64,000 nt of DNA. It comes from Lentinula raphanica (lineage: Eukaryota > Basidiomycota > Agaricomycetes > Agaricales > Omphalotaceae). Below are positions 30,374-50,927 of the stretch, piece by piece. The position numbers and the translations under genes were made by a program. Location of the stretch: the NCBI GenBank assembly GCA_027919835.1, contig JANVFP010000020.1, positions 372,001-436,000 of the forward strand, given 5' to 3'. Every line of letters starts with the position of its first letter. The stretch's first letter is position 1. The notes under the pieces were generated by a model. It made no database searches, had not been told where the DNA came from, and saw only the letters and a list, made by a program, of their open reading frames with translations.

Positions 30374-31507
30374 ATGACATCATCTGGTTCGATTTGCCTC
30401 AGTTCTCACCCGGTCCTCACCAGTTGCAAGAACAGTTTGTCATGTCAAGCGATCAGCTGCCTCCGAATATCATGCAAAAACTACATTATGCAAAAACTAC
30501 ATTGGCTTTGTCTACTCTTAGACAGCCTTCCAAAAGCTCTGCCCTCTCCTCAGAGAGGTGAACTACCCAAACACCCTTTTGGAACATTCCGTCCTGATGC
30601 AGCTTTTCTTGAGCAGACTGAAGATGAGGTGGGAGTGATCAATGAAAGCTTCAAGGCTATTTTTGGTTGGAGAACCAGAACCACAGGTGATGGTATCATT
30701 GACATAAAAGAACGAGGGAAAAACAGCATTGGTGCCGTTGCAGACCTACTCAAGGGATACTTGAAGAAGTATAAGGACAGCTCTGGGGCGCCGAATGCAA
30801 TTTTGGTCAAATGGGTCGAAGACATTTCCAAGGGATGTGAAAAGGTTATAAAGCAACATGGAGAATCGGTATGAATTAAAGTCTAAAGATGTATTACATG
30901 TCATGGCTGTTTGACTGAGCCCAACTATCTAGGTTCCCGATTTCCCCATCAGTCCACCATTGAACTCGAAATGAAGCTTGGATACTGATACACAAGAAGA
31001 AGATACTGACCCAATGGCAAAGGTATGTCACATACTGAATGGCTCTGATTTGACAATCTGAAGTTCTTTATCTAGCGTCGGAAACTAGGGAATCAATTCG
31101 CAAAGCTCCATCTCAAGAAGGTTGCTGCTGTAGAATCCAAGTCTGGACCCGGGCGAACAGAGACAGATGTTATCAGGTGGCTTGCCGTAAAGTATGTAAA
31201 TGAAAAAGGCGAGCCCTTCTATGGTTGCATTGCGGAGAACTGCCCATGGCTCAAATCTGGGAATGCCGCTCGAAACCGCATTCTCCGTCATTGCACTTCG
31301 CCTTGTAAACATCTCTCCGAGGAGGATCGAAGATTTGCCTTCACTCACTCAGCAAAATCATCGTTAGGCCAACACATGGATACTCAACTGAGTACTCAAT
31401 CCACTTCCCCAACCTCCGCTGAAGTAGCAGGCAACAAGCCCATATTGAAGGCAAAATCTATCACCGTCGATTTCACAGAAGCTGGGAAGGAGGAATGGCA
31501 GAAGCGT
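30374..31507 (+). CDS. hAT transposase, 5' exons (BED finger part)
   Basis: Exon 1 runs 30374-30869, containing FGTFRPDAAFLEQTEDEVG and GRTKERGKNSIG-like basic sequence. An intron ends at the AG near 30932. A short exon has a TGA (LNSK*SLD) that may be decay or mis-splicing. After GTATGT...TCTAG near 31075 comes RRKLGNQFAKLHLKK, then a BED-type zinc finger: YGC, NCPW, and RNRILRHC about 20 residues on (about 31210-31300). The exon is broken by the retrotransposon at 31507 after EEWQKR and continues at 48600 without loss of frame. The BED finger binds the transposon ends. Confidence 0.7.
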
Positions 31508-33200
31508 TAACGAGGATATGAAGGGTGCAACTTAATGCTTCGTTGGATAGATCTAATGACCTAGTGACTTTATCACTGAACACTGATCACCAATATACTT
31601 CTTATGTCGTTTGTCAAATGTATTTAAGCGAGGTGTGGGGCGTTGTCAGAGATTCCGCACGATCTTATACCTTAGAACGAACTGGTAGTCTTAAAAGATC
31701 TACTGGATCCGCAATACAGGTCAACAGAGCGAAGTGACACGGAAGTACAGATCTTTTGATCTGGACTCGAAGGGGGTGAGTGATCCACTCAAAGGGTTTA
31801 CAAGGAACGAAAGAACTCGTATAGATCAGACTTTATGACCACACAAATACTATCAGAACCAGGTTGAAGATCTACTGATCACCGATCACAGGAAACCTTC
31901 CACAGCTCGTATGGATCACCGATCACCACACGTCTGCTTGAACAGAGCCACCGAAACTCTGAACGCTCACTTGGAACAACCGAGAACCAAGCCCTCTGTA
32001 TCTCCACGATAGGAGTCTACCTTCGATTCAAATCTAGCTGAGACTTTATCAACTGACAAGATATCGGGCCTAACGAGATGAGAATTTCACAACCACTTTC
32101 GAAGACCGCCCGGCTTACAAAGCCTTTACTCCTCACGTATGAGAGCAAAGGTTAGCTAGTCAGAGAAACTGGGCACAAAACCTGAATATATTTTTGTAGG
32201 CTACGTCCTTAAGTACTTCTACGAAGAGATCTGTAGCCAATTTACTATTTTATGGAATAGATCTATAGATTTGAGAGAACGGAGTCCGAGATCTGATACA
32301 AATAAGGAAAGATAGGACGAGAAACGATACAAACACCAGAGAAACAGAGAGTAAAAAGGATAAAAACAAGTAAAATGTCCATTTCTGGTGGTCCTTCGTC
32401 GAGATCTAGTTGCCTGACCTTCGAATCCGGACCTGGTCTGTGCGTCCATCCACATGCTGGTGGTTAAAGGGCACGGATAAGCTCCTGCACAGGTAACTCA
32501 AACGTTTCCTCATTTGATTCCGCTATGTGAACGGTTGTATGCCTCTCCAACTGAATGGGAGTACATATAAAGGGGGGAAACCTGTCCCAATAGGTTCGTT
32601 TGGCTTCTAGCTTTCCAACAATATGCATATATCGAATAGATCCAGAGGTTTAACAATGGTGAAGTCGAAAGATCTACCCTTGCAACACTCCTGGTCAAAG
32701 CTGTACATCTCAGGCGTCTATTTCCCATTTAGGAAACGTCCACATGTAACTGGGATGATACACTTTGGTTGTTTCTCCGTTTAGTCACATTCCTGCGACC
32801 TGATCCATCCCGAAACTCGATCTAAGTGAACAGATCTGTTGAGTCTGGGCCTTGAATAATCCATCCCCACTGGTAATACGAATAGATCTATTGGTTCTAA
32901 GCTCGTCTCGGTGCAGTATCATACTCAGTTGGCCGTTAGGCATTGAAAACTAAGTTGATAATCCCTTGATAGCTCATATCAGAGGTGGCTTTGTCTTGAA
33001 GGACTCCCCGACCAAGGGACTCGAGTGTTAACTCTTATTATTCGTCAGGATGTGTTTTCCTGTCTGGATCTGACGTCCTGGCATTAACATGATACAAGTT
33101 TGACTGTCAGCTCGGGCTCACTACAGTCCTTTAGTACTTTACAAGGCTCTAATCGTTAAAATTAGGCCATTGCATGCCTGCACGCAAAATGGGCGTATTA
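31508..33200 (-). repeat. 3' LTR (1693 bp)
   Basis: Begins TAACGAGGATATGAAGGG and ends GGGCGTATTA on the plus strand. The match to 46904-48595 is almost complete: one C/T difference near 31706, one extra A near 32620 and one A/G near 32943. The ends are not the usual TG...CA but TAA...TTA. Confidence 0.92.
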
Positions 33201-33260
33201 TCTCCCCCAAACTAAAGATCTGACCGTCCCCGGTCATCTGGTTGGGTAGACAGGCTCGTA
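33201..33260 (-). promoter_or_regulatory. Polypurine tract plus hairpin module (copy 1)
   Basis: Directly inside the 3' LTR. The sense (minus) strand reads TTTAGTTTGGGGGAGA, a plausible plus-strand primer for reverse transcription. On the plus strand TCCCCCAAACTAAA is followed by GACCG-TCCC-CGGTC, a small hairpin. Further copies at 37010 and 39267. Confidence 0.75.
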
Positions 33261-33674
33261 CCTCCCTTGGGAGTGTGGTACTGCAACTGATCCGAGCTTT
33301 TGGATTGATCTCCTCGATATCCCAATGGTATTCCCACTCATTAAGGCTATAGATCTGTTCGGTTGCCTCGGGATCAACTGATGATAATTAAACCCGCGGC
33401 TAACTCGATAGAAGCGCTTAATTTCCGAGTGTGATTATCAAGAGATCTAATCACAACATCCTGCAACTTCACAAAGTTCATTTCTTTGACCTTTGTAAGT
33501 ATTACATTCTTCCTACTATTCTTAGAATTTTCCCAGTGGCTTATTACGTCCTGGGAAGTTCTTAAGAACCGTGGATAAAAGGCTGCCGGACTTCGAAAAT
33601 TTTCTCTAAGTCCGCTTTCTTTCTTTCTTCCACTCCAACATCGTCGCTCAACTGATCCTTCCTCTATTATCGCT
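33261..33674. other. 5' flank of antisense gene P
   Basis: No frame. The last 100 bases are pyrimidine-rich (TTTCTTTCTTTCTTCC near 33620-33640), typical of fungal promoters upstream of a start codon, and fit a promoter for the plus-strand gene at 33675. Confidence 0.4.
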
Positions 33675-36295
33675 ATGTCGTCTCGAAAAGCTGGATCCTC
33701 TTCGACTCATAAACAGTACGCCGTTCGAGAGCTTCGCAGCAAGGCTTCCACCATCGAGGACTTCAAATTCAACACGCAGCTTCGGGCTAGAGACAGTATC
33801 ACTGCTAAGAAACAGGTTCTCTTTCTTCCAGCCTCAAAGCGCGAGTGCGATCTCCTTCGTCAGGCTTGGCCTGCCCACACGAATACTTTCGATTCCGCGT
33901 TCACTTTAAAGCTATACGCAGACCCCGAGCCCGACACTTTGCCAAGTTCCCCTTCCTCTGATCAGAAAACCAAGATCCCCGACACCTTCTACCCAGAACT
34001 TCTTGTTCAATATGTCAAGGAGTTTGAGAGGGGCGCCGTGTGTCGCGAGGAGGGGTTCCTGCTTTACCAGGCTCTCAACATCGTGCAGGACGCGCTTGCG
34101 GACGTTATGGATGAACCCAAGGCCAAAACGAAAGATGCTCTGCTGTCTATGCTCAAGAACTCCCAGGTAACGAACGCCTTGGTAGGTCTTTCGTTTCCTT
34201 TGAGTACCTAAGACTGACATGAGTTAGGGCTACTACCGGCTCTTTTGGCACAAGACCCGTTGCTGCCCCCTCTTCGCTCTGCGGTTCATCTGTCTATTTT
34301 GTGATTTCTGCGCCAAGGTTCTGTCCAAGGCTGAGTACACAGCCAAAGTGTATAATGAAGAGGCTAGGCGAGGGTTCGGTGTCGACGCTACGCTCCGTAC
34401 AAAGGTCCGGGTAAGCAGATTCTTTGTTCGGGCCAGACTACCCTTTCTGACGCTGTCTGCAGGCCTTAAAAGGTCCTGCCCACAACGTTACCTCGCTTGC
34501 CATCCCGCTTCCGCTTGATCCCTCCACCTTCGAAGGCCAGTTACTGATCACGGTCGCACAAGCAGGTCCCGCCGCGCAGGTTCTCCGACATCCTGTTACG
34601 AACGCGATTCTACTGCCTGACCCTAGTGGCGTCGCAGATCTTCCTCCAGCCAGCCCTCTTTTGAACGCTTGGGAGGACGAGGACTTCAGCATGGAAGGCC
34701 CTGCCTCACCCATTGATGAACCCGAGGGTCTCGCTTCGCCGGTCCTGGAACTAGCGGAAGACGACGATGGAGAAACTGAGGTGTCCGATGACATTGCAGC
34801 CGAAGATGTATTTAAGGCCCCAAAGGACAAGGGTAAGGCCAAGGCCTCTATCGGTATGTTCCACCCCTCTCTCCTCTTAGTCCTGTTCACCCTTCTGGCT
34901 GTTTCAGAAATTCCCATCCGTCGCAGCCCTCGAATCAGCATTCCAAAGGCGACTGTGGCGAAGGTTGGGCCTCCTGTGACCAGTAGGCCGATTCCCAAAC
35001 CAATCAAACGCGAGCGAGGCGCCTCCCCTCTTGTGGTAGACGTGGTATGCTCCTGTTTTCTCCTGGCTTCTGCCGCTCCTTGCTAACCAGTTTTTCCTTG
35101 CAGGAGATGCAGGCACCGGCTGCTAAGAAGGCCAAAACCACGAAGGAGACGTCACCTCCTCAAGTTGCTGATGCCGCCACGCCAAAGACTTCCAAAGTCT
35201 CCAAAGCGTCGGTTGCAATGCACGACGTAGCAACAGAGCCTGAGGTTCCCTTGGATCACAATGACCTGGACACCAGAACTCATCATACTCTCTTCCTTAC
35301 GAACCCGAATTTTCAAGTCAAGACCGCCTTTGCCGACCTCGTGGAACAAGATTCCGGCGTCAAGCGTCGCCCCGAAATGCAGATCCTTCGATCGTCCGCG
35401 TGGACAGTTGACGATGAGCTCAAAGGCCTCGGGGCTTTCCTCACTACTCGCGGGGTTTCATTCTCATTGCAGAACTTGGGACGTTTCGGCCACCTGATCT
35501 CTCGCCGCCTCATTCATGAGGATTCTGAGTCTGCTGTAGCCGAACCCGATCTTTATCCTGCCATGGACTGTGTCTCCTGCCAAGTGCGGGGACTGACCTG
35601 CACGGCTGGCTCTCGACTCGGCGGCCCTTGTCAAGGTTGCACCCAATCTCATCGCACCTGCCCAAGTGCCTTGCACCTGAACCTGCAGTCAGATCTTCTG
35701 CAAGAGCTGCCAAAGTCGGTTCAATCTCTTCCTGGCGGTAAGCAGCTTCCGACCGTTTCTGAGCCACTTTCATCCAACTAATTTGGTTTGTTCCTGACTT
35801 GCAGGTTACACTTCAGCCCTCGACCGTTTTCAGGCTGGGCTAGAGAGCTATTTCCGTGCTCAAGAGCTTGCGCAGGAAATGTGGAACCTCTCTGCCTACA
35901 ACCTTAGTCAGTTGATCCATAACCTCAAGGCTTCCGGACTCGATGCCAACGTTGTTCTCTCAGCGTGGGCTAAAGAGCATCCGGACGACAAACTTAGCTA
36001 TGACGACGCGACTCTGTTTGCCACCTTCTTCGACTGGAACTCTTCGTGCAACCTTTCCGCTTATCTTGAGAAACCTGAGGAGGTTGAGAAGCTCCAACAA
36101 TTCTTGAAGGCCCACCAACTCGACCTCCCTTCGGTTCCTTCGACCTCGGGTGAAGCAGCGTCTGTTCCTGTCGAGCCTCCAGTTGCAGAACAGAGGAAGA
36201 CCTATTCGGCCATGCACGCCTCCAACTGGAACGTCGAGGCAACAGCAAAGCCTGACGAACCGGATACTCCTCTTCCTGAAGAACAGAAACCCTGA
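33675..36295 (+). CDS. Antisense retrotransposon gene P: Zn2Cys6-type cysteine-cluster protein, 775 aa
   Basis: Six exons join in phase: 33675-34166, 34228-34410, 34463-34853, 34908-35044, 35104-35737, 35805-36295. All introns are 50-67 nt with GT-AG borders. The N-terminal part (MSSRKAGSSSTHKQYAVREL...) is unrecognised. Exon 2 has a Cys-rich helix (CCPLFALRFICLFCDFCAK). Exons 3-5 encode acidic and basic disordered linkers (RRSPRISIPKA, KKAKTTKE). At 35569-35661 the cysteines are spaced C-x2-C-x6-C-x9-C-x2-C-x6-C, exactly as in fungal Zn2Cys6 DNA-binding domains, but basic residues are sparse. The last exon is helical. It lies opposite to gag-pol between two polypurine-like modules. No frame break was found, unlike gag-pol. 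DNA-binding or regulatory activity is inference only. Confidence 0.75.
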
Positions 36296-37110
36296 ACAAT
36301 CTTCGGTTCCTGTCTCCCGGCCTTGGGTACCTGGTTTCCTCTGGTTGGATCTGTTCGTCGGTACGCGTTCTTGGACTCGGACAAATCTCTTTGTACATAT
36401 TCCCATCGCGGACTCATATACAGACCCATCGCTTTACTACATATGGACTAAACATCATCACATCTTTACTCGTAGCCTATGTAGTATTTCTTTGAGGTCT
36501 TTTCAATATATCTTGGTACATTCTACAGACTCTTAGGTAGTACCTTAAGTAGTCTGGTCCAATGCATGGCCTTAGTGCCAATTTGATCTTGAAACCTCGT
36601 GTGAAATTCTTCATAAGTCCACTAAGTTGACGAACATGAATAGATCTGTCCTTAGTAGTGTAGAAATAAAGTAAGCTCTAATAGAAGTCTTTGAAATACG
36701 AATTTCGTGACTTTACTGAGCCTCTTTGTAAGGGAAATGAATAGATCTGGAGTATCCCTTGTTACAGGACCCCCAGATCTGTGAATATATGCGGAAAACA
36801 CGAATAGATCTATTCGTTTCTTTCGTGCCTTTCGCTTATAAAAATGTTGGTGGTCACTGCCCTAAGGTCTCTTAATCCTTTGGGCAACTAATGTGAGCTA
36901 CGTCGGCCTCAGATCTAGTGCTATACATGTTACCCACATGCTTGTTTCACTTAGATCACTGACTTCGTAAAATTTAAACTTTTGAAAATTTTCGAAACAC
37001 AGTGTCCCCTCCCCCAAACTAAAAGCTCAGCAGTCCCTGCTGACTCAGTCAAGGAAAGTTTTCGTATAAAACAGCACTGATCTGAGTAGATCCAACTCCC
37101 AAACAAAAAT
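36296..37110. other. Spacer between antisense genes, with polypurine-like module (copy 2)
   Basis: No gene. At 37008-37050 the plus strand reads CTCCCCCAAACTAAAAGCTC followed by the hairpin CAGCAG-TCCC-TGCTG, a repeat of the module beside the 3' LTR. Several AGATCT motifs. It probably holds the 3' end of gene P and the promoter of gene Q. Confidence 0.5.
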
Positions 37111-39090
37111 ATGGCGCCCAACCACGAATTTTCCAACATTCCCCTTCGTTTGGAGTCCGAGCTTGAGGACTGGGCTGACGATGCAGCACACTGGGTCAAG
37201 GTACTATGTCAAGATCGTACCCTAGGCTTCAGTGCTGCTATCAATCAACAAGGATCCATCAAGCTTCAGACTTCGACGAGAAAAGCGATCATGGCTGATG
37301 TAAAAGCTGCCTATGAACACATTGTATGTATTTCATGAGTAGATCTGTTCACTATCAGACTTCTGACGACTTTTCCAGTCCCTTAAGGTGTCGAAGGAGG
37401 CTGCCAGTCTCAACACATCGTACATGCAACAGTACGAGGCCTTGAGTGAAGCCTTGATCGGCATCATGGCCTTCTCTGAGATCGCAGAGGAGGCCGGCAG
37501 ACTCTACCCCAACGTCAAGAATGAGGGTGGACAAGACTCCCGGATGGAACTGTTCCTCGACGAGCTCGTCAAGATCCGTCGTTCCGCCACACGAGCCAAA
37601 ATGCAGAAGGCCGAAGCCGCTGCAAAGGAAGTCAAAAACTCGACTCCAGGAGTAAGTATTGCTTCGAAAAACTTCGTCCCTTCGATAGATCTGATCAATT
37701 TTCAAAGACCAAAGGCAAGGAATCGTCCAAGGCCAGAGAAAAGACCGTGGAACGTGCTTCAGTCGAGCCCATTGACGCTGAACAGAAGTTCATGGAAGAA
37801 ATCGTGAGTAGATCTGTTCGTCGGGTCGATCCGAAGTATTGATCCATCGAGTTAGGAAGCAGATCTCGCCGCCGCCGAAGCTGAAGACGAGGCTGCTGCA
37901 CGTAAGGCCCGTCCCAAGGGAACTACTGCCTTCCTTCGTCGTCAACAGGCAAGTCCAGGCTGTGATGGCATTGCAGCCTACGCCATTCTTGCTTATCGAG
38001 CCGAACGTCGTGCTAAGTTGTATCGAAAGGGCACTCCCGTCAAGGTAGCTGACCAAGATAGCCCTGTACGTCGTTCCACTTGATAGATCTAACGGTTTCT
38101 GACGAAGATCTTCAGATGGAGGACGTTGCAGGTGAAGAAGAGGCGTCTCCCAAGGCTAAGTCTAAGTCCAAGTCCAAAAAGAAGTCTAAGGTCGTCGAGG
38201 AGACTCCTGAGCCAATGGCTGACCCGGATATTATCGTAAATACCTTTAGATCTACTCAAAACGAATAGATCTGACGATTCTTTAGATGGAAGAGGAACCC
38301 AAACCCAAGGCTAAGGCCAAGGGAACGAATGCTGAGGAAGAGACTACGAAGGCTTCCAAGGGCAAGGGAAAACGAAAGCGACAGGACCAAGACGTGGGGG
38401 CAGCAGGATCCGCTGAGACTTCAGTAAACCCTGAGCCTTACTCAACCACTGCTGGCCTGAGACTATCGTTCAGCCCCTGGCGACCGGAGAGGAACGGACC
38501 AAGAGGACCAAGGTCTACCTAGATCTGGCCGATACTTGTAAGTACCTCGAGTCATTTCCAACAGATCTTCTCTTCTTTTCGCTCTATTATTTATCACAGA
38601 GCAGCAAGGATCACTAGATCTATTGCTTTAGCATGTTGTCTTGCGTTTGAACTGTCTCTAGGACGTGGTATCCGAGCTAATCATCTTCACAGGCGACCCA
38701 GGAGATTCCGAAAACTGGGACCTCGTCCGTCTCCTTCAAGATATCACTCATAGCCACGCCGCTGAGTACAGCAACTATACCGAGGCACAGTTCAATGCCT
38801 TGGTTAACTTCCATCAGAATCAGCTTTTCGACTGTTCCATCAAAGCTAGGTTTTACGCTCGACGTGGGTTGGCAAGTCAGGCCATTATCGACAACGCCTG
38901 GAAGGCTTTCCGTATGAAACAGCCCCTGAACGTCGACGACGACAGCAATCCTCGCGAGGAAGTGGTTGTCGTTCCTTCCTACACACCCTACACTCGTCCC
39001 CTTATGATGCCACCCAGGGGTGATCCACAAGGTGATAGAGAACAGCTAGCACGCCTAGATCCTTCGCTTCCTCCACATTCCGCGCCTTAG
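37111..39090 (+). CDS. Antisense retrotransposon gene Q: lysine-rich coiled protein of unknown function
   Basis: About eight exons: 37111-37323, 37379-37651, 37708-37803, 37856 to about 38065, about 38116-38235, about 38286-38537, and from about 38662 to the stop at 39090. The N-terminal helices include DWADDAAHWVKVLCQ and YMQQYEALSEALIGIMAF. The middle is charged and Lys-rich (KSKSKSKKKSKVVEE). The C-terminal block contains VSELIIFTGDPGDSENWDLV and FYARRGLASQAIIDNAWKAF. One apparent single-base frame break occurs near 38455. Several introns contain TAGATCTG. I recognise no family. The last exon ends about 35 nt from the end of the integrase frame on the opposite strand. Confidence 0.6.
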
Positions 39091-41080
39091 GTAGACGTCT
39101 GAAGTAGTTGAAACACCAGATCCATTCGTTCCCGTTGTCCTGGTACCTATTTTTATACCTGATATGCAGTCAAGTAACGTATTAGGTAGTTTTTGAGGTA
39201 ATTCAGTCGATGACCAACTTCCTCGAGCATGTTGAGATAGAGATTTCGAAAGATCAATGACCGGACTCCCCCAAACTAAATAGATCTGTTGGTCTAACTC
39301 AGTTTGATGAGGAGATCCTTCGACTACGACGTGGGCCTGCCTCAGAATTGTCATCCTCAGGTGCTTCATCATTAGAACCGGACTCTGCAGCCTTCGGATC
39401 CGGAGGATCTGTATCTTTTCAGCTGAAGTATCGAATGTGACTTCAGGATCCTCAGATATGTTGATCTTAGGGATTGCTCCGAATACTAGATCCTCAACAT
39501 TATCAGGGGTATCCTCGTCATCATCGACCATAGCTTCCAGTTGTTCTGGACTCAGATCTATCAGGTCATGGATGTTCTGGGGCAGATCTATTGGTTCGAA
39601 ACGAGCATGATGAGGCATTACTCTGAATGCACCGACTTTGTCTTTCAGTACGGTACCATCCATTTCAGCAATGATATAAGATCCTCCTCGTGTTCGTCTG
39701 ATCACAACCATAGGTCCACGGTAACGACTATACATTTTTCGATCCAAATTCTTCTCGATGGTGGTGTTCCTGATCTGTACCAAGGTCCCTGGTTTGAAAT
39801 CCCAGTCCTTGATAGTATATCGGAACTTGTCTTCGAAGATCCTAAGATCTCGACGCTTATTAGCATCAATCCTGGATCTCATGTTCTCAATGAAGGAACG
39901 GTGTTTGGAAAGGGCCTGGCACGATAACCCAGCAACTCTTCCCGAGAGAGGATTCGATTTGGTGGATTGACCAAATAGGTAGATTCGACGATATCAAAAG
40001 GGAGTAACGGTTCTGCACCAGTTACAACAAAATAGGGAGAGCATCCGAGACCCCTCCTAGGAGTGACTCGATCTGCCCATAACATCGGCTTCAGGAAGTA
40101 GAACCATTTGCTCAGATCTCCGGCACAAGTCTTTGCTAAGGCCTGCCTCAGATCATAATGAGCACGCTCAATCTTCCCATTAGCTTGAGAGTTATACGGG
40201 GAAATCTTAATTCCTCGGATCCCATACTTTTGTTCCAACCATTTCAGCATAAGCTTCATTTGGGGTGCATTATCCGAAACAACTTCCTCAGGACATCCCC
40301 ATCGACAGATAATGTCATCAAAGAACCATTCAGCTATAGATCTGGCATTTTCCACTCTTAAGGCTCTCGCCTCGGACCAGGATGAAAGTGAATCTCGACC
40401 ATGCACTATGTACTTACACCCATTACTGGATGGAGTCATGAACATGGTGTCAATATGTATCTTCTGAAACAGGGAAGGGGTATAAGTAACCGTTGGAGGG
40501 ATTCTAATGAGAGCCCTCTGTCGATCCTGACAGGCTTGGCACGATTTAACATACCACTCCACGTCTTTGTCCAGATCTGGCCACCAAAACCTCTTTTCCA
40601 AGAAGTCCTTCGTTGCAAAGACACCTTTGTGACCAAGGGCATCATGTGCACTGTTTAGAAGAGCCATTCGTCGATCAGGATCCACGACTAAACGAGGCTG
40701 ATCTGACGATAACTTCCTATGGTACAATCGACCTTCGGTATCAATGGAGAAGGGAATTACTTTCCTATCCATTTCTAACCGTTGTTTCTTGTCCAATTTC
40801 CCGAAACATTCTGCGTCAGGGTTTTTCAGCCACTCCAAGATCTCTGGCAACTGCTTGTCCAAACGATTTCCTCCATCAGATCTGTGGGAATCCGGATATG
40901 ATTGATCTGGTCCCCAGACTGCATTGTCAGGAATCGTGGTATATTGCAGATACTGAGAAACTGGTTGCATCCCATGCATAAGCAGATGGTCCTTTCGTAG
41001 TTTATGCTCGAGATCTTCTTCTCTGGCAAGTTCAGATCTTCCTCGAAATCTGGGCAATAGATTCCTAGGAGATAACCATG
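39091..41080 (-). CDS. pol: Integrase part of pol
   Basis: The HHCC zinc finger is HDALGH...CQAC (about 40650-40530). The catalytic core has KIHIDTMFM (first Asp, about 40460), VVSDNAPQ (second Asp, about 40280) and NGKIERAHYDL (Glu, about 40180), the D,D-35-E layout. The C-terminal SH3-like/GPY-type piece reads KMYSRYRGPMVVIRR and GGSYIIAEMDG (about 39740-39660). An acidic tail follows. A −1 break near 39905 separates core and tail; another lies near 41030. A polypurine-like module (copy 3, CTCCCCCAAACTAAATAG, 39267-39284) follows the tail. The enzyme inserts the cDNA into the host chromosome. Confidence 0.85.
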
Positions 41081-43449
41081 CCTTGGATCTATATGATCTT
41101 TAAACGAATCAAAGGGAAATGGATCGTCGCATCATCTGCTTTCAGAAACCTGATGTTGTTGGAGTCATCCTCGTCCAGATCATCTTCACTGGTCGACTTT
41201 CCGCGAGGAGTTGTCCAACCACCAGGTGGTCTTCGAGATAAGCCATCAGGTCCATGTGTCACACCTTTGACATGTACCAAATCGAAATGGAATTTACGGA
41301 TTGCCTCAATCCAACGATTAATGGTTGCATTTGGGCCACTACTGGGGTTTTCAAGCATTCCCTGTATGTAGCTCGCATCAGTTTCCACTATCAGTTGTCG
41401 GCATCCATAAAGAAGATAATGGGTGGACTCCAAAGCAAGTTTCAGACCATAAAGTTCACGTTTAGACTGTGAAAAACGGGCTTCCCGTTCCACGTAGGGA
41501 ATAGATCCAAAGTAATTGTAATAGATCTTTTCAGGGTCGTTAGGATCTACTTGATAAATGTAAAATCCTGTTCCCATCCAGGAGCTATCGACTGATAGAT
41601 GTGTTTCCCAATCATAAACAATGACTCTAAGGGCTGGTGCATTTCGCACTCCTTCCTTTAGTAGTTCCATAGCAAGATCCTGCTCCTCAGACCACTCAAA
41701 CGGTACATTTGCCGTCAATTTAGTCAAGGGGGCAGCTTTCTTGGAATAGTTGTGAATGAACATTCGAAGCTGGCCAACAGTCCCCAGAAAAGCTCTCACA
41801 TGTGTTCGAGTTTCGCATTTAGGCCAAGTTAGGACCGTAGTAGCGATCTTATCATCTGGTTTCTGTCCTTCATAGGCACAACGATGTCCAACCACTGTGG
41901 TTTCCTCACAACAAACGAAGGCTTTAGGTCCTGAAAGGTACCTCCAGCATGCTTCATTCGTTGGATGATCCGATTCACGTTTTGAAGATGTTCCCATACG
42001 AATCGACGGATCTGTGGGTTTTCCGGAATGGTTTCATATCCACCACCTGGTAACTCATATCGACTCTCGGGTCCTCGCACAGGTACATCATCAATGTAAG
42101 GAATAGTATATTCAGGAATTTCGTCTCGTAACAAGTAAGTTACATCGTCATGGAAGATTGGTACCGAGTTGGTCCATCCCATAGGCAATTTGACGAGACG
42201 ATGTGGTCCATAAGGAGTTTGGAAAGTGGTGAGATCCCTAGATCCAACGTCTATATGTCTCTCATCATAGCCCACAAAGATATCCAAGATCCCTCCACAT
42301 GCTCTGCCTGCAAAGTGTCTAGCAATGTCCGCAGTAGCTGGGGGAACCCCGGAGTGCCGTATAGTAACCTTATTCAAAGGCTCCAGACTGTGCACCAATC
42401 TTAGGCTCGTTCCATCCTTTTTCACCACACAGAACCATTTAGATCTGTAGCTTGCACTCGATGGTTCGTAAACTCCTGCAAGGATCTTGTCCTTGATTAT
42501 CTTACAAACCTTGGAAAGATTCCTGGAGGCACGGGAATGTTTTTCTCGACCCAGGGTTCGTGAGGTATAACCGGAATCTTTACTGGAGGGAAGAAATCCT
42601 CTCTGAAAGTTCCACCTTCGGATTGATCCCAGGCAAAACCCATTTCCTGAACCTTCATCAGATGATGAACGAGTTTTCGTTCCTCATTTGTTAAGAATCC
42701 TTCTGGATGGTTCTTGTCAATAATCTCCTTACGCTCTTGCGTGTATCGGACTCCCGGAGTGAATTCAGGTGGATGAGTCGGCAGATCTGGCAATCCTTCC
42801 AAAGGATCTCCAAAGATATGACGACGAACCCTAAATTCCTCAGGAAGTTCAGCCTTAACCGGGCGTACTTTCAACGCAACAGGCTTATATTTTCGAGAAC
42901 CGAAGACAGATACATTTGAATATGATGACATTGGGTCACTATATGCGCCTATATGCTGTTCAAATGTTCCATTCTTTTGTTCCCACGATTGAACTCGTTC
43001 CCGGGCACTCCTCAAGTCGTAGGACTGGGAATTATCCGGTTGATCTGGACTTACATGGTCCAGATCTGAAGTGTAATCACTTGGCCGGGACAACCCATGA
43101 ACGTCTCTCGTCAGACTTTTAGCTTTAATAGACTGATAAAATGACTGTTCAAGTTGTTCCACGTCCGGATCAGTTCGAAATCCTTCCTTCCAAGGATTGA
43201 TCACACGATTTTGTTGATGGTCCACACCTTTGTTTAGGTATAGATCTATGGTTTCAGCGACTTCAGGAAGTGAATCCCTAAACGAGGGTTGGCTATAATT
43301 AACATATAGTTCAGCCAATTCTTCGTCTCGGAACACTCCTTCTTTCACTTTGGTCGACTCAATGACTACTTCTTCACCTAAAGGATCCCAATACCCACTC
43401 ACAGCGATTTCAACCTCTCCCTGATCGCTACTCAGATCACAGAGGTTAT
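41081..43449 (-). CDS. pol: Reverse transcriptase and RNase H part of pol
   Basis: Begins with a linker (FAWDQSEGGTFREDFFPP near 42620). RT motifs: KWFCVVKKDGTSLRLVHSLE, GGILDIFVGYDERHID (catalytic Asp, about 42280), FQTPYGPHRLVKLPMGWTNS, and PYIDDVPVRG (about 42090, YxDD). RNase H: VDSSWMGTGFYI, SQSKRELYGLKLAL, VETDASYIQGML (about 41600-41350), then VKGVTHGPDGLSRRP. Single-base breaks occur near 42510, 41960 and 41095; each is repaired by adding one base in a short homopolymer. Entry from the protease frame is through a possible −1 frameshift site at 43453-43459. Confidence 0.85.
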
Positions 43450-44934
43450 CTAAAAATTTGGTTCAGCAGTTTTCTCCTCTTCTTCGGGACTGGTCTCCTG
43501 ATTTGGATCTGGAGTCTCTGTCCGAGTCTGAGCATACTTCTGCTTATCCAACTGCCGTTTCTGAGCTTTAGGACTTTGTCCTCTCGGACTAGTACCTATG
43601 GTGTATTGCTTTCCAGTGTTCGGATCTGTTATGGTTAACTCTTGGTCACCAGATCCAAACGTATGGATGACACTTTCTGTCAGTACATCGAAAGGTCTAC
43701 CCAACAGAATTTCGAAGGGTGCCTTTTCCTGCACATGGCATTGTAGATACAGTGTTATGGGTCCAAATCGGAATGGTACGTTCCTGGACAGTCCTTTGGT
43801 ACGGGCCAGACCTCCATGCACATTCTGCATTTGGATGGTCACTTTCGGATCCCAACCTAGTCCTAATCCTAAGGCAACACACATATCGATAGCAACAATC
43901 TGAGATCCAGAGTCTAATACACTCTCGATGTCTAGATCATCTCGATTATTCACAACTGGCCACACAGATCTTAAGCCATTTCCCATAGTGGCTACTATAG
44001 TCATATCACGACGTGAATCATTTTCATCAACATCATGAAGAAAAGCTACCACCGGATCCAACTGAACATAATCCCCTGCCTTCATGCCATCTCGATCCTC
44101 GAGTATTTTCTCAAAGATCAATCCTTCTGACAGACTGAGATCTTCCACGGCAATGAACTGTTGCATCTCCATCCCTGTTCTCGGGATTTCCTCGACACTA
44201 GGTTCAACATCATGGGCCTCATTAACAAAGGACTTGATTCGTTCTTGTGGACGCACTTGGCGGTTTTTCATCTTCCTCATCATGATCTGCCTGACTTTGC
44301 CTGACAATTGGAATGCCTCAGCAGCCGTCAATGTGATCATTTGACGAGAAATCCGATCAGCTAATTCTTCTTCAAGGCCTGGAATGAATAACTCATTCCG
44401 AAGCCGAAATTTGGGTCCCTTGAAGATCCTTTAGATTCAGTGACCTTCTCCGGTTTGGATTTTGGTTGATTTCGAGGTATGGGTGACACTTCCCTGGGTG
44501 GGACATGATCAAAAGGTCGATGTGTTTCGTCAGATCTAGAGGGTGAGGGCTCCCTGAAACGCACTTTGCGAGTGGTCTCACTAGTTTCCTCAACTAATTC
44601 TACTTCAGAATCAGAATCCTCTTTATCCGATTTCTCTTCGAACTAACAGATCTCGACTTCCCTAGTGAAGTATCCCCTGATGAATGATTGGATCTGTTCG
44701 ATTTTCCGTTCAGATCTTTCGAATTGGATGGTTCAGGAGCAGATTTGGATTGATTGGCAACATTTTTAAAATTTGGGTGATTTCGATCTACGGGTATGTG
44801 CACTCCATCAAAACGTTTTGTCTTAGTAGGAGGCACAGTTTTCAATGAACGGGGCTTAGGTTCATCCTCATGAGTCGTGTCCTTCAGCTGGGACCTTGTT
44901 TTTCGTCCCTTGCTCGACTCAATCATCGGATCCT
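43450..44934 (-). CDS. Aspartic protease with linker
   Basis: From about 44926 a charged linker (KGRKTRSQLKDTTHEDEPK...) leads, after −1 breaks near 44640 and 44400, into NELFIPGLEEELADRIS-type sequence. The protease then carries ESVLDSGSQIVAID (DSG active site, about 43920) and PFEILLGRPFDVL (about 43700). It ends with a Lys/Glu-rich tail at a TAG (43450). It would cleave the Gag-Pol polyprotein. It is linked to gag by a possible −1 frameshift site (44938-44944). Confidence 0.75.
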
Positions 44935-46809
44935 CTAGTTTCCCGACTCATTACTGTACACCGTTGCAACATTGTTGCTAGATCTCCCCTGGGAAGATTC
45001 AACTACGTTGGCAAGGTACAACCAAGTAGGATCCCCCAACTGATCTGTATAATCCTCTTCATCGGGGATTAGATCATTGTATAACGTCGCCAAAACAGGC
45101 CAGTTCTTGCTCTGAGCATATTTCACGATCTTTTGGTATCGAGTTTCCGGACCAAAGTTATTTGGTAACGGAGATCCATCTTTCAGCTTAAGACGTTTGG
45201 ATCCTTGAGACTCCGGCATCACCCAGCCTTTCCCAAGGAGTTCCATGAACAAGGGACAGTTACTCATCATATGATCTGGTCCTCGACACAAGAAACACGT
45301 TCGATCTGGCATTCCTTGGCCTGGAGGGGGATTACATTAAGGATCCCTCGACCCTGCCCACTGGTTCCGGGATTACTACTACCAGAAAAGCCAGGTCTGG
45401 GCTGGGGTCGCATTCCAGCATCCGATTTTCCTGCCCTAACATCATTGAGCAATTGCTGCAACGACGTCAGTTCATCCTGAAAACGCGTCTTAAGATTCCC
45501 CATTTCTTTGAGCATCAACGACGATTTGTCCACATTTTCCACAAAGGCACGTTCATGGTCCTCTGCCTGTTCCTGCTTAACACTAGATCTAGTGTCTGTA
45601 GCAAAGAAACGGGTCAGATCTGGCGTTTCCTCTTTAGCAGCTGCTGGGGTAACCACCGGAATATAGATCCCTCCCTAGAGTTGGTCTCTGCATTCAGGAC
45701 AGCTCCATCCGTTCCAGTAAAGGTCTGGTATAGTGATTCGAGAGGGGGCTGCCTAGCCACAGCCTCTGCAGCACTTTTCCATTCCGAGAACGTATATGGA
45801 TCATCCGTACGCCGTTTCGCAAGTTTCGAGTTGGGGACCTGATGCTGAACTCGTTTCGAGACAGCTTTTCTCAGGTTTCCATCGAATGCTGATAGAAAGA
45901 CCGACACCAATTCATGGTTTCCAATCGCCGGGGCGGTTTCAACAACTTATTGGCCTCGACTTCGAACAACATACAATAGATCAACAGCTCAGATCCATCC
46001 TCGACTCTCAATGGTCGAAACCTCTGAACCAATTCCAGCATAGCTTTCTTGGAACCCAGGGGTTTGCCAAAGATAGACGGGAACCGCTCAATCATGGCTC
46101 GAAGGAATTGATCTGCATCCTCCTTTCCTTCCTCTGCTCCAGGGAGATGCTCTAAGGCCTGCTTCGTCTGGAGGGTCATCCATCCAAAGATCCTTTGCAT
46201 CTTCACCTTCTCAGAGGTCACACCCGTGGCTTGGAACGTCGTTAGACAGAACCTCATCCATTCAGGCATTTGGATCGGATCAGCTAGATCCAAGATCATA
46301 GCCGTTTTATGAGTGGCAGGGAACTTCGCATTGTTGTATTCCCCTTGCTCTTCAGGAGACAACGCAGGAGGTCCCAACAGTTTGAGGATATCCACTGGAG
46401 CCTCGTTTGCACCTTGTGCATTTTGGTCATTTTGTGTAGTACTCATCGTTATATTTGGTATTCTGTTCCCAAACACGATACGTTGCAAGTCAAAAGAAAT
46501 AGAGTTTGGTAATGTAGGATTCAAACTAGTCAAATCGACTGGTTCAGCAGTAACTGCCTGACGTCTACTGCTTCCTTGCACTACACCAGATCTGTTCGTT
46601 CTTGGAACTTCAGAAGCAGATCTAGCAGCAGTCCCGTTATCTGGATTGCTCTTTGCTCGTCCGAGGTTCTTCGGATCGTAGACAGGAACCGTAGGCTTCT
46701 TTGTAACACGTTTTCTTTTATCCGGGGCTTGCACCTCTGGATCAAAGTAATCTAAAGAACCTGCGTTCTTCGACGTCCGAGACTCCCTTGGAGCTATTTT
46801 TAAGATCAA
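44935..46809 (-). CDS. gag: Gag with CCHC zinc knuckle
   Basis: The frame starts near 46809; the ATG of MSTTQNDQNAQGANEAPVD near 46446 is another candidate. The capsid-like part includes WMRFCLTTFQATGVTSEK, FGWMTLQTKQALEHLPG, then HELVSVFLSAFDGNLRKAV. The nucleocapsid knuckle CFLCRGPDHMMSNC (about 45300-45255) has C-x2-C-x4-H-x4-C. Frame breaks near 45935, 45660 and 45330 are all of the −1 type, next to short homopolymers. It ends NESGN* at 44935. It would form the particle that packages the RNA. Confidence 0.75.
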
Positions 46810-46883
46810 ACAAAGTTCGACCTAAGGCAATGGTTTGAGAAATCGATAGATCTCTCGAGTTCGTTCCAAAATATAGATTCCAC

Positions 46884-46901
46884 CCCTCGCGGTGGGCTCC
46901 A
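46884..46901 (-). promoter_or_regulatory. Primer-binding site
   Basis: Two bases inside the 5' LTR the sense strand reads TGGAGCCCACCGCGAGGG, complementary to a tRNA 3' end finishing ...GGGCTCCA. This fits minus-strand priming by a host tRNA. I cannot name the tRNA. Confidence 0.8.
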
Positions 46902-46903
46902 GA

Positions 46904-48595
46904 TAACGAGGATATGAAGGGTGCAACTTAATGCTTCGTTGGATAGATCTAATGACCTAGTGACTTTATCACTGAACACTGATCACCAATATACTTCTTA
47001 TGTCGTTTGTCAAATGTATTTAAGCGAGGTGTGGGGCGTTGTCAGAGATTCCGCACGATCTTATACCTTAGAACGAACTGGTAGTCTTAAAAGATCTACT
47101 GGATCTGCAATACAGGTCAACAGAGCGAAGTGACACGGAAGTACAGATCTTTTGATCTGGACTCGAAGGGGGTGAGTGATCCACTCAAAGGGTTTACAAG
47201 GAACGAAAGAACTCGTATAGATCAGACTTTATGACCACACAAATACTATCAGAACCAGGTTGAAGATCTACTGATCACCGATCACAGGAAACCTTCCACA
47301 GCTCGTATGGATCACCGATCACCACACGTCTGCTTGAACAGAGCCACCGAAACTCTGAACGCTCACTTGGAACAACCGAGAACCAAGCCCTCTGTATCTC
47401 CACGATAGGAGTCTACCTTCGATTCAAATCTAGCTGAGACTTTATCAACTGACAAGATATCGGGCCTAACGAGATGAGAATTTCACAACCACTTTCGAAG
47501 ACCGCCCGGCTTACAAAGCCTTTACTCCTCACGTATGAGAGCAAAGGTTAGCTAGTCAGAGAAACTGGGCACAAAACCTGAATATATTTTTGTAGGCTAC
47601 GTCCTTAAGTACTTCTACGAAGAGATCTGTAGCCAATTTACTATTTTATGGAATAGATCTATAGATTTGAGAGAACGGAGTCCGAGATCTGATACAAATA
47701 AGGAAAGATAGGACGAGAAACGATACAAACACCAGAGAAACAGAGAGTAAAAAGGATAAAAACAAGTAAAATGTCCATTTCTGGTGGTCCTTCGTCGAGA
47801 TCTAGTTGCCTGACCTTCGAATCCGGACCTGGTCTGTGCGTCCATCCACATGCTGGTGGTTAAAGGGCACGGATAAGCTCCTGCACAGGTAACTCAAACG
47901 TTTCCTCATTTGATTCCGCTATGTGAACGGTTGTATGCCTCTCCAACTGAATGGGAGTACATATAAAGGGGGGAAACCTGTCCCAATAGGTTCGTTTGGC
48001 TTCTAGCTTTCCAACATATGCATATATCGAATAGATCCAGAGGTTTAACAATGGTGAAGTCGAAAGATCTACCCTTGCAACACTCCTGGTCAAAGCTGTA
48101 CATCTCAGGCGTCTATTTCCCATTTAGGAAACGTCCACATGTAACTGGGATGATACACTTTGGTTGTTTCTCCGTTTAGTCACATTCCTGCGACCTGATC
48201 CATCCCGAAACTCGATCTAAGTGAACAGATCTGTTGAGTCTGGGCCTTGAATAATCCATCCCCACTGGTAATACGAATAGATCTATTGGTTCTAAGCTCG
48301 TCTCGGTGCAGTATCATACTCAGTTGGCCGTTAGGCGTTGAAAACTAAGTTGATAATCCCTTGATAGCTCATATCAGAGGTGGCTTTGTCTTGAAGGACT
48401 CCCCGACCAAGGGACTCGAGTGTTAACTCTTATTATTCGTCAGGATGTGTTTTCCTGTCTGGATCTGACGTCCTGGCATTAACATGATACAAGTTTGACT
48501 GTCAGCTCGGGCTCACTACAGTCCTTTAGTACTTTACAAGGCTCTAATCGTTAAAATTAGGCCATTGCATGCCTGCACGCAAAATGGGCGTATTA
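46904..48595 (-). repeat. 5' LTR (1692 bp)
   Basis: Twin of 31508-33200, one base shorter. It should hold the retrotransposon promoter; no TATA position can be assigned with confidence. Followed on the plus strand by GCGT (48596-48599), the target duplication. Confidence 0.92.
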
Positions 48596-48599
48596 GCGT

Positions 48600-50927
48600 C
48601 TCGACTTTTCTGTCATGAAACTCATATGTGTTCAAGGCATTGCACCGAATGTCCTCGATTCCAATGAGTGGAACGAGCTAATCTCTGTCGCTACCAAGAA
48701 CTGGCTCAAGGCTACACACTCCGATATCTTTGAAGAAAGGCACATTCCGAATGAGGCATCCCATATTCGACAACTCACGATCGAGCTGCTCCGCAAAGAG
48801 CACAACCTTACGCTCACATTTGATGGCAGTGATACTCGAGGTGGTGACTCCATCTATACAGCACACGCCACTACAGCGGATCGGAAGACCTACTTTCTGA
48901 ATTACTATGAGGGCACTGATGAGCATCATACTGGGGAATGGGTCGAAGAATTCATCCTCAACGTGCGTCTTTCACAAAATTCAATTCCTCAGTACTCATG
49001 CTATTTCTCTGATAGTCAATGGATCTCGTTGGCCACCAACATTTTGGTGCAGTCTGTTCAGACGATACAGGCAATACGCACAAGGGACGCTACAATATGA
49101 AGAACCAAGTCACCTCAATCCTGAATCTTCGCGATGCTTGCCATTTCATCCACAACATGTCGAAGGATATCACCAATCTTCCGGAATTCGTGGAGGTACA
49201 TATTCGATTGACTACATGACATGTCCATACTGATGATATGCTGTAGATGAAGGAGACATTGTGCGACACAATCAAACTATTCAGTCAATCCAAGTATTCG
49301 GCGCGACTATTGAAAAAGGAACGGCTTGAGGACAACATCATGCAAGGGCTTGTGAAAATTGGAAAAACACGTTTCGCCACTCACTATAGTGCATCAGCTG
49401 CACTCGATAAGTGTTTTGACTATATACAGCAACTTATCTATGATAAAAAAAGTCGTTCCAAAGGTCTGTCACTCTACACTCTGTGAAATCTACAAAGCTG
49501 ACCCGGTCTTTGAAGAACAAGGATATCACCAAGACATTCACCGGTCAGAGGTCAAGCCTAAAGTTCAAACTTGTCCTTGCGCAGTACAACAAAATTATGG
49601 AGCCTCTCGCACGCTCGATCTGGTCATTGGAAGCCGTTCACATGAATCCAGCGGATGTCTACCTCTTCTGGCTGGCAATGGGTACCGAACTTCAATCCTT
49701 GTTTGATAAAGATGAGGATGACACTGGGATTGAACCTCAACTTGCACGAAAAGTCATTCAAATCTTCAATCACCGCTTTCGAGTCTTTATCAATCAAGCA
49801 CCAGATGACGTGTACTTCACAACACTTTACTTGGATCCTCGTAAGTCGTTAACCACATACAGTGGCAGGTACTGATCAGTGAAATCAGGCTTTGTTGATT
49901 CCGACTTATTGAAGAAATCTGGAATGATCTCGTCAAGCAGCCTCACAGTCGTTCTTCCTGCACCATCCTCCGGGCTCAAAGATGATGCTCCCGAGGCAGA
50001 AACAACACCCAGTCCTAGTGCATATCGGCGAGTAAAGAGAGCGCTGAAAGGTATATTGCGCGGTGAGGTTGATATGTATCGCAGCTATGGCGATTTGTCG
50101 AGTATCGCCGCTCTTGTAAAGGCTCGAGGATCAGTTCAAGCGCTTGTCAGCGAATTTGTACCGCAGTTGGTTGCATACTCGCGAAGGGAGTATCCATTTA
50201 CAGATATGGTTTCAAAATCTACGCTACAATGGTGGCAAGATTTACTTCTCCATCCAAAAGGATGTGTTCTAGCGGTATGTCAATACTTCTTCATGCATGG
50301 CTCATCACTGAATACTGTCTAGTTTTGTGCAGTCAAGTTATACTCGACACTTGCGAATTCAATGCCAGATGAACACTGGGGTTCCCACAAGACTCGTATC
50401 AATACTCCATCACGCAACAAACAGAGCGCCAGCACTATTGCACGAATAATAGAAGTCGGTGAATGGTACAGTACTCATCAGGTAATGTGCTGCTATCTTA
50501 CACTTGCAAGTCACTTAAACATGGGTGGTGTTTGTAGAAGCCAGAAAAACCTCGCAAAAAACCTCAGGTGAGATTCTCAACCATCTCTGAGAATCAATCC
50601 AAAACACAGGCAACCGACTGTACTCAGTCAGATGGTGAAATGGAGTTGCAAGAGGCGCTCGAGTCTCAGGTTGAGGTTGAAGGCAAGGATCAGGATGAGG
50701 ATGAACCTGGAGAGGGATTTGATGCTGGTATAGTTGAGTCTGAGTCGATTGAACTCGATGAGGACATCAACCTTGGGTCCAAAATTCTTCGACGGGTCAT
50801 ACCAAAGGAAGCCTTGGATGGACCCGGTGTCGTACTCCAAGCCTTTGCACTGCCGGAAACTGTTGAAGATGATGTGGCTACAGTTGAACATCATGATACA
50901 AACGGTATTGATTGGGATAACATATAG
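48600..50927 (+). CDS. hAT transposase, 3' exons (DUF659/RNase H-like and C-terminal part)
   Basis: Continues the frame broken at 31507: RLDFSVMKLICVQGIAPNVL, ELLRKEHNLTLTFDGSDTRG (first catalytic Asp region, about 48830), HFGAVCSDDTGNTHKGR (about 49045, second Asp region), DACHFIHNMSKDITNLPEF, KIGKTRFATHYSASAALDKC, and MEPLARSIWSLEAVHMNPAD. Then STLQWWQDLLLHP..CVLA and FCAVKLYSTLANSMPDEHWG give the C-terminal hAT region with the Glu side of the active site. An acidic tail ends at 50927 (IDWDNI). Introns of 45-60 nt occur near 48965, 49193, 49465, 49840, 50275, 50480 and 50540. Only the segment near 49450-49500 is hard to join. Apart from the retrotransposon it could once have been functional. 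Confidence 0.8.

What the first reader, a model, noticed from the sequence alone, without database searches (positions are those of the whole stretch)
31508..48595. LTR retrotransposon with two spliced antisense genes between integrase and 3' LTR
Gag-pol, PBS and PPT all define minus-strand sense. Yet 33675-36295 and 37111-39090 are plus-strand genes with consistent phase-respecting introns. Because the introns face the wrong way for the genomic RNA, they survive retrotransposition, so these are genuine separately transcribed cargo rather than extensions of gag-pol. Antisense ORFs are known in some plant Gypsy elements; I know of no named fungal family with two intron-bearing ones. The near-identical LTRs mean the whole unit moved recently.
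Basis: partly seen in the sequence, partly recalled or inferred. Interest (0 to 1): 0.88.

Follow-up and report, generated by a model that had tools for sequence, protein, structure and literature searches.

The report
Retrotransposon with one hypervariable antisense gene
A fungal-looking jumping element carries two extra split genes running backwards; copies of the element are almost identical to each other except for one of these genes, which differs hugely from copy to copy while still coding for much the same protein.

Summary
31508-48595 is a Ty3/Gypsy-order LTR retrotransposon on the minus strand, with LTRs identical at 1690 of 1693 positions. Between integrase and 3' LTR it carries two plus-strand genes with GT-AG introns. 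Gene 1 encodes 775 aa and has 5 introns, not 6; gene 2 encodes 503 aa and has 7.

Both genes recur in the family. Gene 2 is full length in 19 other places at 96-99% identity; gag-RT in 15 others at 99%.

The larger finding is that gene 1 is the exception. Copies about 97-99% identical elsewhere differ by 27% on average over a sharp-edged ~3.1 kb block (about 33620-36760) that fits gene 1's inferred transcription unit. Silent sites and introns there are near saturation (median dS 1.87, against 0.047 in gene 2). The protein is under purifying selection (omega 0.05-0.14 in the main allele class); exon plan and a six-cysteine Zn2Cys6-like motif persist even at 43% identity. Some alleles are mosaic; allele distances do not follow the rest of the element.

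Best reading: a pool of old gene-1 alleles is shuffled among elements by recombination and kept by rare-allele advantage, perhaps escape from sequence-specific silencing. RNA data and other fungal genomes could not be tested.

The parts
31508..33200 (-). 3' LTR (in gag-pol sense)
   Evidence: 1690/1693 identical to the other LTR; other listed copies 98-99% (40 of 310 candidates scored)
46904..48595 (-). 5' LTR (in gag-pol sense)
46885..46901 (-). putative tRNA primer binding site next to the 5' LTR; tRNA not identified
   Evidence: position and sequence
33203..33216 (-). polypurine tract at the 3' LTR (copy 1 of 3 of the same motif)
37010..37023 (-). internal copy 2 of the polypurine-tract motif, about 100 bp upstream of gene 2
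   Evidence: kept in other copies
39267..39280 (-). internal copy 3 of the polypurine-tract motif, between gene 2 and integrase
   Evidence: not found exactly in C13_117813 and C9_1445295
33201..33619 (+). conserved leader with a TATA-like stretch near 33574-33581: inferred promoter of gene 1
   Evidence: mean pairwise divergence 2.5% over 33201-33610
33620..36760 (+). hypervariable cassette (gene 1 with 5' and 3' untranslated parts); edges approximate
   Evidence: mean pairwise divergence 27% (91 pairs, 14 copies)
33675..36295 (+). gene 1, 775 aa; exons 33675-34166, 34228-34410, 34463-34853, 34908-35044, 35104-35737, 35805-36295
   Evidence: homologous models in other copies
35569..35661 (+). 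six-cysteine motif C-x2-C-x6-C-x9-C-x2-C-x6-C in gene 1 (Zn2Cys6-like)
   Evidence: all six Cys kept in 10 of 11 aligned alleles; the 11th row is cut short after the third Cys
37111..39090 (+). gene 2, 503 aa; exons 37111-37323, 37379-37651, 37708-37803, 37856-38065, 38116-38235, 38286-38423, 38474-38537, 38693-39090
39879..41099 (-). integrase ORF (zinc-binding and core domains)
   Evidence: PF17921 E 6.6e-19, PF00665 E 0.0038 (below its cut-off)
41089..42033 (-). RNase H ORF
   Evidence: PF17919 E 2.8e-13, PF17917 E 5.7e-9
41829..42683 (-). reverse transcriptase ORF (weak match)
   Evidence: PF00078 E 0.029, below curated cut-off
43450..44430 (-). aspartyl protease ORF
   Evidence: PF13650 E 8.3e-5 (23.7 bits, cut-off 24.3)
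44935..46821 (-). gag region (CCHC knuckle in 44935-45336), split over frames in this copy; no Pfam gag match
   Evidence: translations, motif read by eye
31504..31507 (.). target-site duplication GCGT, left
48596..48599 (.). target-site duplication GCGT, right

Best explanation
The locus is a recently inserted Ty3/Gypsy-order LTR retrotransposon of a fungal-looking genome, from a family with two antisense, spliced accessory genes transcribed from internal promoters (expression inferred). Shown: the family is about 97-99% uniform in LTR, leader, gag-pol and gene 2, but gene 1 and its untranslated parts form a discrete ~3.1 kb cassette of old alleles with saturated silent-site divergence and strong amino-acid constraint, some of them recombined with each other. 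Inferred: alleles move between elements during reverse transcription, when two co-packaged RNAs are copied into one DNA (the extra polypurine tracts on each side could make the cassette a separate plus-strand segment), or by gene conversion. Inferred: the pool is kept by advantage of rare alleles. My preferred cause is that gene 1 encodes a nuclear regulator that the element needs, and that its transcript is the sequence by which the host (which has Piwi-domain and DNA-methyltransferase loci) or sibling copies recognise and silence the element; copies with a new gene-1 sequence but the same protein function escape.
For: Family and constraint. Contrast between gene 1 and the rest: gene 1 65-85% against LTR mostly ~99%, gene 2 96-99%, integrase mostly 98-99%; median dS 1.87 in the 34 of 36 unsaturated pairs against 0.047; introns 0.41-0.49 against 0.008-0.065; cassette mean 0.272 over 91 pairs against 0.008-0.025 in the five other segments. 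Sharp edges. A second, more divergent allele class on the same chassis: six other full-length matches are only 75-78% identical to its one readable member, conserved leader included. Recombination: 9 of 153 pairs mosaic by the criterion, 6 after dropping pairs with insert-truncated rows; gene-1 distance uncorrelated with gene-2 distance, r 0.04, p 0.40, nine copies; window allele and C18 allele: 1 difference between 33675 and 34200, 12 in the 49 bp 33626-33674, many downstream. No chassis of intermediate age was listed: integrase hits are at least 96% or 74-76% (40 of 70 candidates scored), RT-gag hits at least 96% (37 of 118 scored). Silencing genes: Piwi-domain matches at 6 loci, C5-methyltransferase matches at 3.
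Against: No transcript, small-RNA or population data; one genome only. Gene 2 is also antisense and would form double-stranded RNA too, yet it is uniform, so silencing escape must explain why gene 1 alone is the target. Repeated introgression of gene-1 alleles from other species' elements could give the same pattern without rare-allele advantage. Cassette edges match the transcript only by sequence inference (TATA-like box, pyrimidine-rich start); no poly(A) site was mapped. dS above about 1 is saturated and imprecise. Mosaic pairs are few (6-9 of 153), and the two halves of gene 1 still correlate (r 0.54). Several copies carry broken gene 1 or gene 2, and two copies lack most of gene 1.
Confidence: 0.6

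Rival explanations
1. Protein-level self-recognition: gene 1 encodes a self-limiting factor (like Ty1 copy-number control) that blocks elements of the same allele, so rare alleles spread.
For: The pool of many alleles on one chassis fits rare-allele advantage (16 clusters at 5% among 18 copies, two of them insert-truncated rows). Precedent: Ty1 gag exchanged by horizontal transfer and recombination, with allele-specific restriction (PMC7055915 abstract).
Against: No 30-codon window of gene 1 has pN above pS; the highest ratio is 0.46 at codons 414-439. Divergence is mostly silent, also in introns and untranslated parts, more than protein recognition needs.
Confidence: 0.2
2. Serial introgression: gene-1 alleles arrived from elements of other species and were pasted onto the local chassis by recombination, without rare-allele advantage.
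For: Saturated silent divergence resembles between-species distances; mosaic tracts show that pasting happens.
Against: Only the gene-1 block is foreign-like; no donor chassis between 76% and 96% identity appears in the capped lists.
Confidence: 0.15
3. Localised hypermutation of the gene-1 transcription unit, with purifying selection on the protein.
For: Block edges fit the inferred transcribed region.
Against: Two alleles share 526 bp with one difference beside stretches differing by up to 40%; distances do not track chassis distances; the fourfold-site transition fraction 0.44 is near the saturation value of about 0.39 that I worked out by hand from the base composition, and shows no single editing or RIP-like bias.
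Confidence: 0.04
4. Ordinary accessory cargo: two antisense genes captured once and passively carried.
For: [quoted passage not shown]
Against: Does not explain the roughly 40-fold contrast in silent divergence between the two neighbouring genes.
Confidence: 0.03

Closest known systems
brtn antisense gene of Boty-like elements, Botrytis cinerea (Zhao et al. 2011; seen only as cited in PMC8365987 and PMC7264820)
   Same: Fungal LTR retrotransposon with an extra antisense gene between pol and 3' LTR
   Different: One antisense gene is described; in the passages I saw there is no mention of introns, a second gene or a hypervariable cassette; sequence not compared
Plant antisense aORF families: Grande gene23, RIRE2, Retand, PvRetro13 (PMC7264820, parts 1 and 2 of 3 read; PMC11963269, abstract and section list)
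   Same: Position and orientation; own promoter and nuclear product reported for Grande gene23; possible DNA binding suggested for Retand TRP28
   Different: Plants; the review says such genes are about as conserved as other element proteins, whereas here gene 1 is far less conserved than the rest at nucleotide level
Ty1 copy-number control and gag exchange in Saccharomyces (PMC7055915, abstract and section list)
   Same: Part of an element replaced by recombination; element-encoded allele-specific control
   Different: Ty1 (a copia-type element, recalled), gag-derived factor, two subfamilies; here an antisense gene with at least a dozen alleles in one genome
VANC anti-silencing proteins of VANDAL DNA transposons (PMC5735166, abstract and section list)
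   Same: Idea of an element-encoded regulator with short target motifs in the element's non-coding parts (here AGATCT)
   Different: Transposon of Arabidopsis; no homology tested; binding of gene 1 or 2 to AGATCT not shown

Membership tests
Ty3/Gypsy LTR retrotransposon | Paired LTRs with target-site duplication | tested here: met
Ty3/Gypsy LTR retrotransposon | PR-RT-RH-INT order | tested here: met
   (RT match weak, E 0.029, below cut-off)
Ty3/Gypsy LTR retrotransposon | RT phylogeny inside Metaviridae | not tested
   no tree built
[quoted passage not shown]
   frames unbroken in 9 of 15 gene-1 and 9 of 21 gene-2 models
LTR retrotransposons with antisense accessory ORFs (aORF-3R) | Transcription from an own internal promoter | not testable with these tools
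   only a TATA-like stretch
Zn(II)2Cys6 fungal transcription factors | C-x2-C-x6-C-x5-12-C-x2-C-x6-8-C spacing (recalled) | tested here: met
Zn(II)2Cys6 fungal transcription factors | Match to a Pfam profile of the family | tested here: not met
   no Pfam family at E 0.1 for gene 1, so it is not filed as a member
Boty/brtn | Homology of the antisense protein to brtn | not tested
VANC-like anti-silencing system | Product binds a motif enriched in the element's non-coding DNA and lowers methylation | not testable with these tools
   motif enrichment only: AGATCT 70 against 9 expected

The most novel reading that the evidence does not exclude
A retrotransposon family keeps a pool of ancient alleles of one antisense regulatory gene, like a self-recognition locus, and shuffles them onto a homogeneous chassis. 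Selection acts on the nucleotide identity of the transcript while the protein stays constant: a transposon-borne allele system for evading sequence-specific silencing.
Probability: 0.35. Interest if true: 0.92.

Novelty: new variant of a known kind. Interest (0 to 1): 0.78.

Why it matters
The functions of antisense accessory genes of LTR retrotransposons are not known (review PMC7264820). A family in which one such gene is held at saturated silent divergence, while the rest of the same copies is about 97-99% identical, is a natural experiment: it says the gene matters, points to rare-allele advantage, and makes the idea that elements diversify sequence to escape homology-based silencing testable with small-RNA sequencing from one strain.

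Tried and rejected
Hypermutation and RIP-like decay: disfavoured because of shared near-identical tracts, near-saturated fourfold changes and constrained frames. Recent host gene capture: of the 37 merged segments, one (C1:1645102-1648476) shows gene-1 pieces without any other tested part of the element; gene-1 matches outside those segments were not checked for context. Telomere-truncated elements at contig ends: the seven ends inspected show no telomere repeats and look like plain assembly breaks. Structure: AlphaFold models of gene-1 exon 1 (mean pLDDT 55.1) and exon 5 (38.5) were too poor for a fold search, so none was made. PBS tRNA: ARAGORN found no tRNA in the window and the genome was not searched for one. 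Rfam: no match in the window. AGATCT pairs genome-wide: 531 places against 161 for the reversed control pattern, but only the first ~100 rows are listed, too few to compare families. Sister-family gene-1 diversity could not be measured (letters not available). Host species not identified. Eight paper searches, of which I saw the top 10-20 rows each, listed no case like this; that is not proof that none is in print.
Full report
WHAT IS THERE. The window lies in G000:C20:372001-436000, an unnamed 49.06-Mb assembly of 75 contigs; the short introns and gene style look fungal, but I did not identify the species. LTRs 31508-33200 and 46904-48595 are identical at 1690 of 1693 aligned positions. They are flanked by GCGT on both sides, or AGCGT if the terminal A is not counted. 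Minus-strand ORFs give protease, RT (weak), RNase H and integrase in Ty3/Gypsy order. The gag-pol frames are interrupted in this copy; near gene 2, 4 of the 23 copies compared show a frame of 429 aa where the window shows 302 and 236. ORFs at both flanks have no Pfam match at their cut-offs; they look to me like halves of one hAT-type transposase gene, which is recalled and untested.

THE TWO ANTISENSE GENES. Gene 1 (33675-36295) reads through as 775 aa with five introns of 52-67 bp, gene 2 (37111-39090) as 503 aa with seven of 50-155 bp, all GT-AG. Neither protein has a Pfam match over a cut-off (gene 2's IpgD hit, E 0.026, 13.4 bits, is below its cut-off of 22). Gene 1 carries C-x2-C-x6-C-x9-C-x2-C-x6-C, with all six Cys in 10 of 11 alleles aligned, the 11th being cut short; the spacing is that of Zn2Cys6 clusters (recalled), without a profile match.

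COPIES. DNA searches of the genome found gene 2 full length in 19 other places at 96-99%, the 5.25 kb of gag-RT full length in 15 others at 99%, and LTRs at 98-99% (40 of 310 candidates scored, so a lower bound). Gene 1 instead matches at 65-85%, and in a further set only in short blocks. The one member of that set that I could read (L069 plus L049) fits the same six-exon plan without breaks over the whole reference length, with 42-43% protein identity (its stop codon was not located), on the same chassis (LTR piece 99%, integrase 98.7%). Six other full-length matches to it are 75-78% identical, the conserved leader included. Intactness: 9 of 15 full or nearly full gene-1 models and 9 of 21 full gene-2 models have no break or stop (one of the nine gene-2 models has an insert that the aligner took as an intron and was left out of dN/dS).

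HOW VARIABLE, AND WHERE. From an alignment of 18 copies, 14 were used for segment means (left out: C13_117813, C14_1176702 and C26_222637 for inserts, C13_988300 as the divergent class). Mean pairwise divergence is 0.8% in the inner LTR, 2.5% in the leader, 27% in 33620-36760, 1.6% in 36780-37110, 1.9% in gene 2 and 1.9% at the integrase end (78, 91, 91, 55, 45 and 36 pairs). The steps lie near 33620, just after a conserved TATA-like stretch, and near 36760, some 465 bp past the gene-1 stop. Among nine clean full gene-1 alleles median dS is 1.87 and dN 0.155 (34 of 36 pairs; two saturated); eight clean gene-2 copies give 0.047 and 0.0087. For the five copies clean in both genes, mean pS is 0.685 against 0.051. 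Omega is 0.05-0.14 in the 28 pairs of main-class alleles and 0.19-0.28 against the divergent class, where 2 of 8 pairs were saturated. Introns of gene 1 differ by 41-49% (eight alleles), those of gene 2 by 0.8-6.5%. The window holding the cysteine motif is the most conserved (94% aa identity, codons 558-587); no window has pN above pS. The 18 copies fall into 16 clusters at 5%, but two of these rows are insert-truncated, and one of them (C26:222637) is close to the C38 allele in its first half, so 14-16 alleles is the fair count.

RECOMBINATION. Nine of 153 pairs have at least one 150-bp window at 2% or less and one at 20% or more; three of the nine involve insert-truncated rows, leaving six. 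The clearest case: the window allele and the C18 allele differ once between 33675 and 34200, yet 12 times between 33626 and 33674, and by up to 40% further downstream. Over nine copies gene-1 distances do not follow gene-2 (r 0.04, p 0.40), leader (r -0.11, p 0.74) or 36780-37110 distances (r 0.19, p 0.14), but the two halves of gene 1 follow each other (r 0.54, p 0.002). No chassis of intermediate age was listed: integrase hits are at least 96% or 74-76% (40 of 70 candidates scored).

OLDER RELATIVES. Of 14 places with an integrase 74-76% identical, 5 have a gene-2 homologue (45-50% aa over the C-terminus) and 2 a gene-1 homologue (36-37%) on the matching strand and at nearly the window's distance (about 1.4 and 5.1 kb). 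Both protein lists were capped (58 of 237 and 85 of 224 candidates scored; not fully listed), so these are lower bounds.

OTHER ANATOMY. The 12-mer CCCCCAAACTAA, the polypurine tract read on the plus strand, occurs at the 3' LTR, before gene 2 and between gene 2 and integrase, and is kept exactly in the fetched copies that reach those places, except the third in C13_117813 and C9_1445295. Internal tracts could start extra plus-strand segments and so cut the element into exchangeable modules; this is inference from retroviral biology, recalled. AGATCT occurs 70 times in the element against 9 expected (first-order) and 15 against 20 in the flanks. In the six gene-2 copies counted, nine of eleven lie in about 468 bp of introns; gene-1 models have 0-3 per copy. 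Eight other RT-bearing loci, probably of few families, have one per 3.48 kb.

MECHANISM. Shown: an old lineage feature with two constrained antisense genes, one in a recombining pool of old alleles. Inferred: maintenance by rare-allele advantage. I favour escape from sequence-specific silencing because divergence is mostly silent, covers introns and untranslated parts, ends near the inferred transcript ends, and the genome has Piwi-domain matches at 6 loci and C5-methyltransferase matches at 3. The weak point is that gene 2, also antisense, is uniform. Rivals are given in their field.

KNOWN RELATIVES. [quoted passage not shown] PMC11963269, abstract) and as brtn in Boty-like fungal elements (cited in PMC8365987, four passages; the original was not read). 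Allele-specific control and exchange of an element gene is known for Ty1 (PMC7055915, abstract). Motif-guided anti-silencing is known for VANC (PMC5735166, abstract and section list). The listings of eight paper searches showed no description of a hypervariable antisense cassette.

CHANGES ON CHECKING. 

Noticed in passing
31508-48595: AGATCT is about 8-fold over-represented across the element, densest in the introns of gene 2 (9 in 468 bp) and near background in gene 1; flanks sometimes extend it to a longer palindrome (for example at 36806).
   Followed up: partly
33204, 37011, 39268: Three identical copies of the polypurine-tract 12-mer, bracketing gene 1 and gene 2 as modules.
   Followed up: partly
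G000 C36:502222-502916 and C22:1013159-1013853 (match coordinates only): Two copies lack nearly all of gene 1 (leader, the first ~104 bp of gene 1, then gene 2), which hints that gene 1 can be supplied in trans, or at a duplicated region.
   Followed up: no
C37:245565-253854 (L056, L023, L036): Gene 1 of this copy shows 33 small frame breaks spread through the gene, more like uncorrected sequencing indels than decay.
   Followed up: no
L024 about 773-1500 (C5:1751630-1752357): Gene 1 of this copy is interrupted by an insert of about 730 bp with degenerate TTAGGG repeats.
   Followed up: partly
31076-31510 and 48597-49100: The insertion seems to split a hAT-like transposase gene (recalled resemblance); no Pfam match over a cut-off.
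   Followed up: partly
G000, e.g. C48:9503-11002, C24:259849-261348: Related elements (integrase 74-76% DNA identity, 14 places); gene-2 homologues at 5 and gene-1 homologues at 2 of them lie at matching positions, so the two-gene arrangement is probably older than this family.
   Followed up: partly
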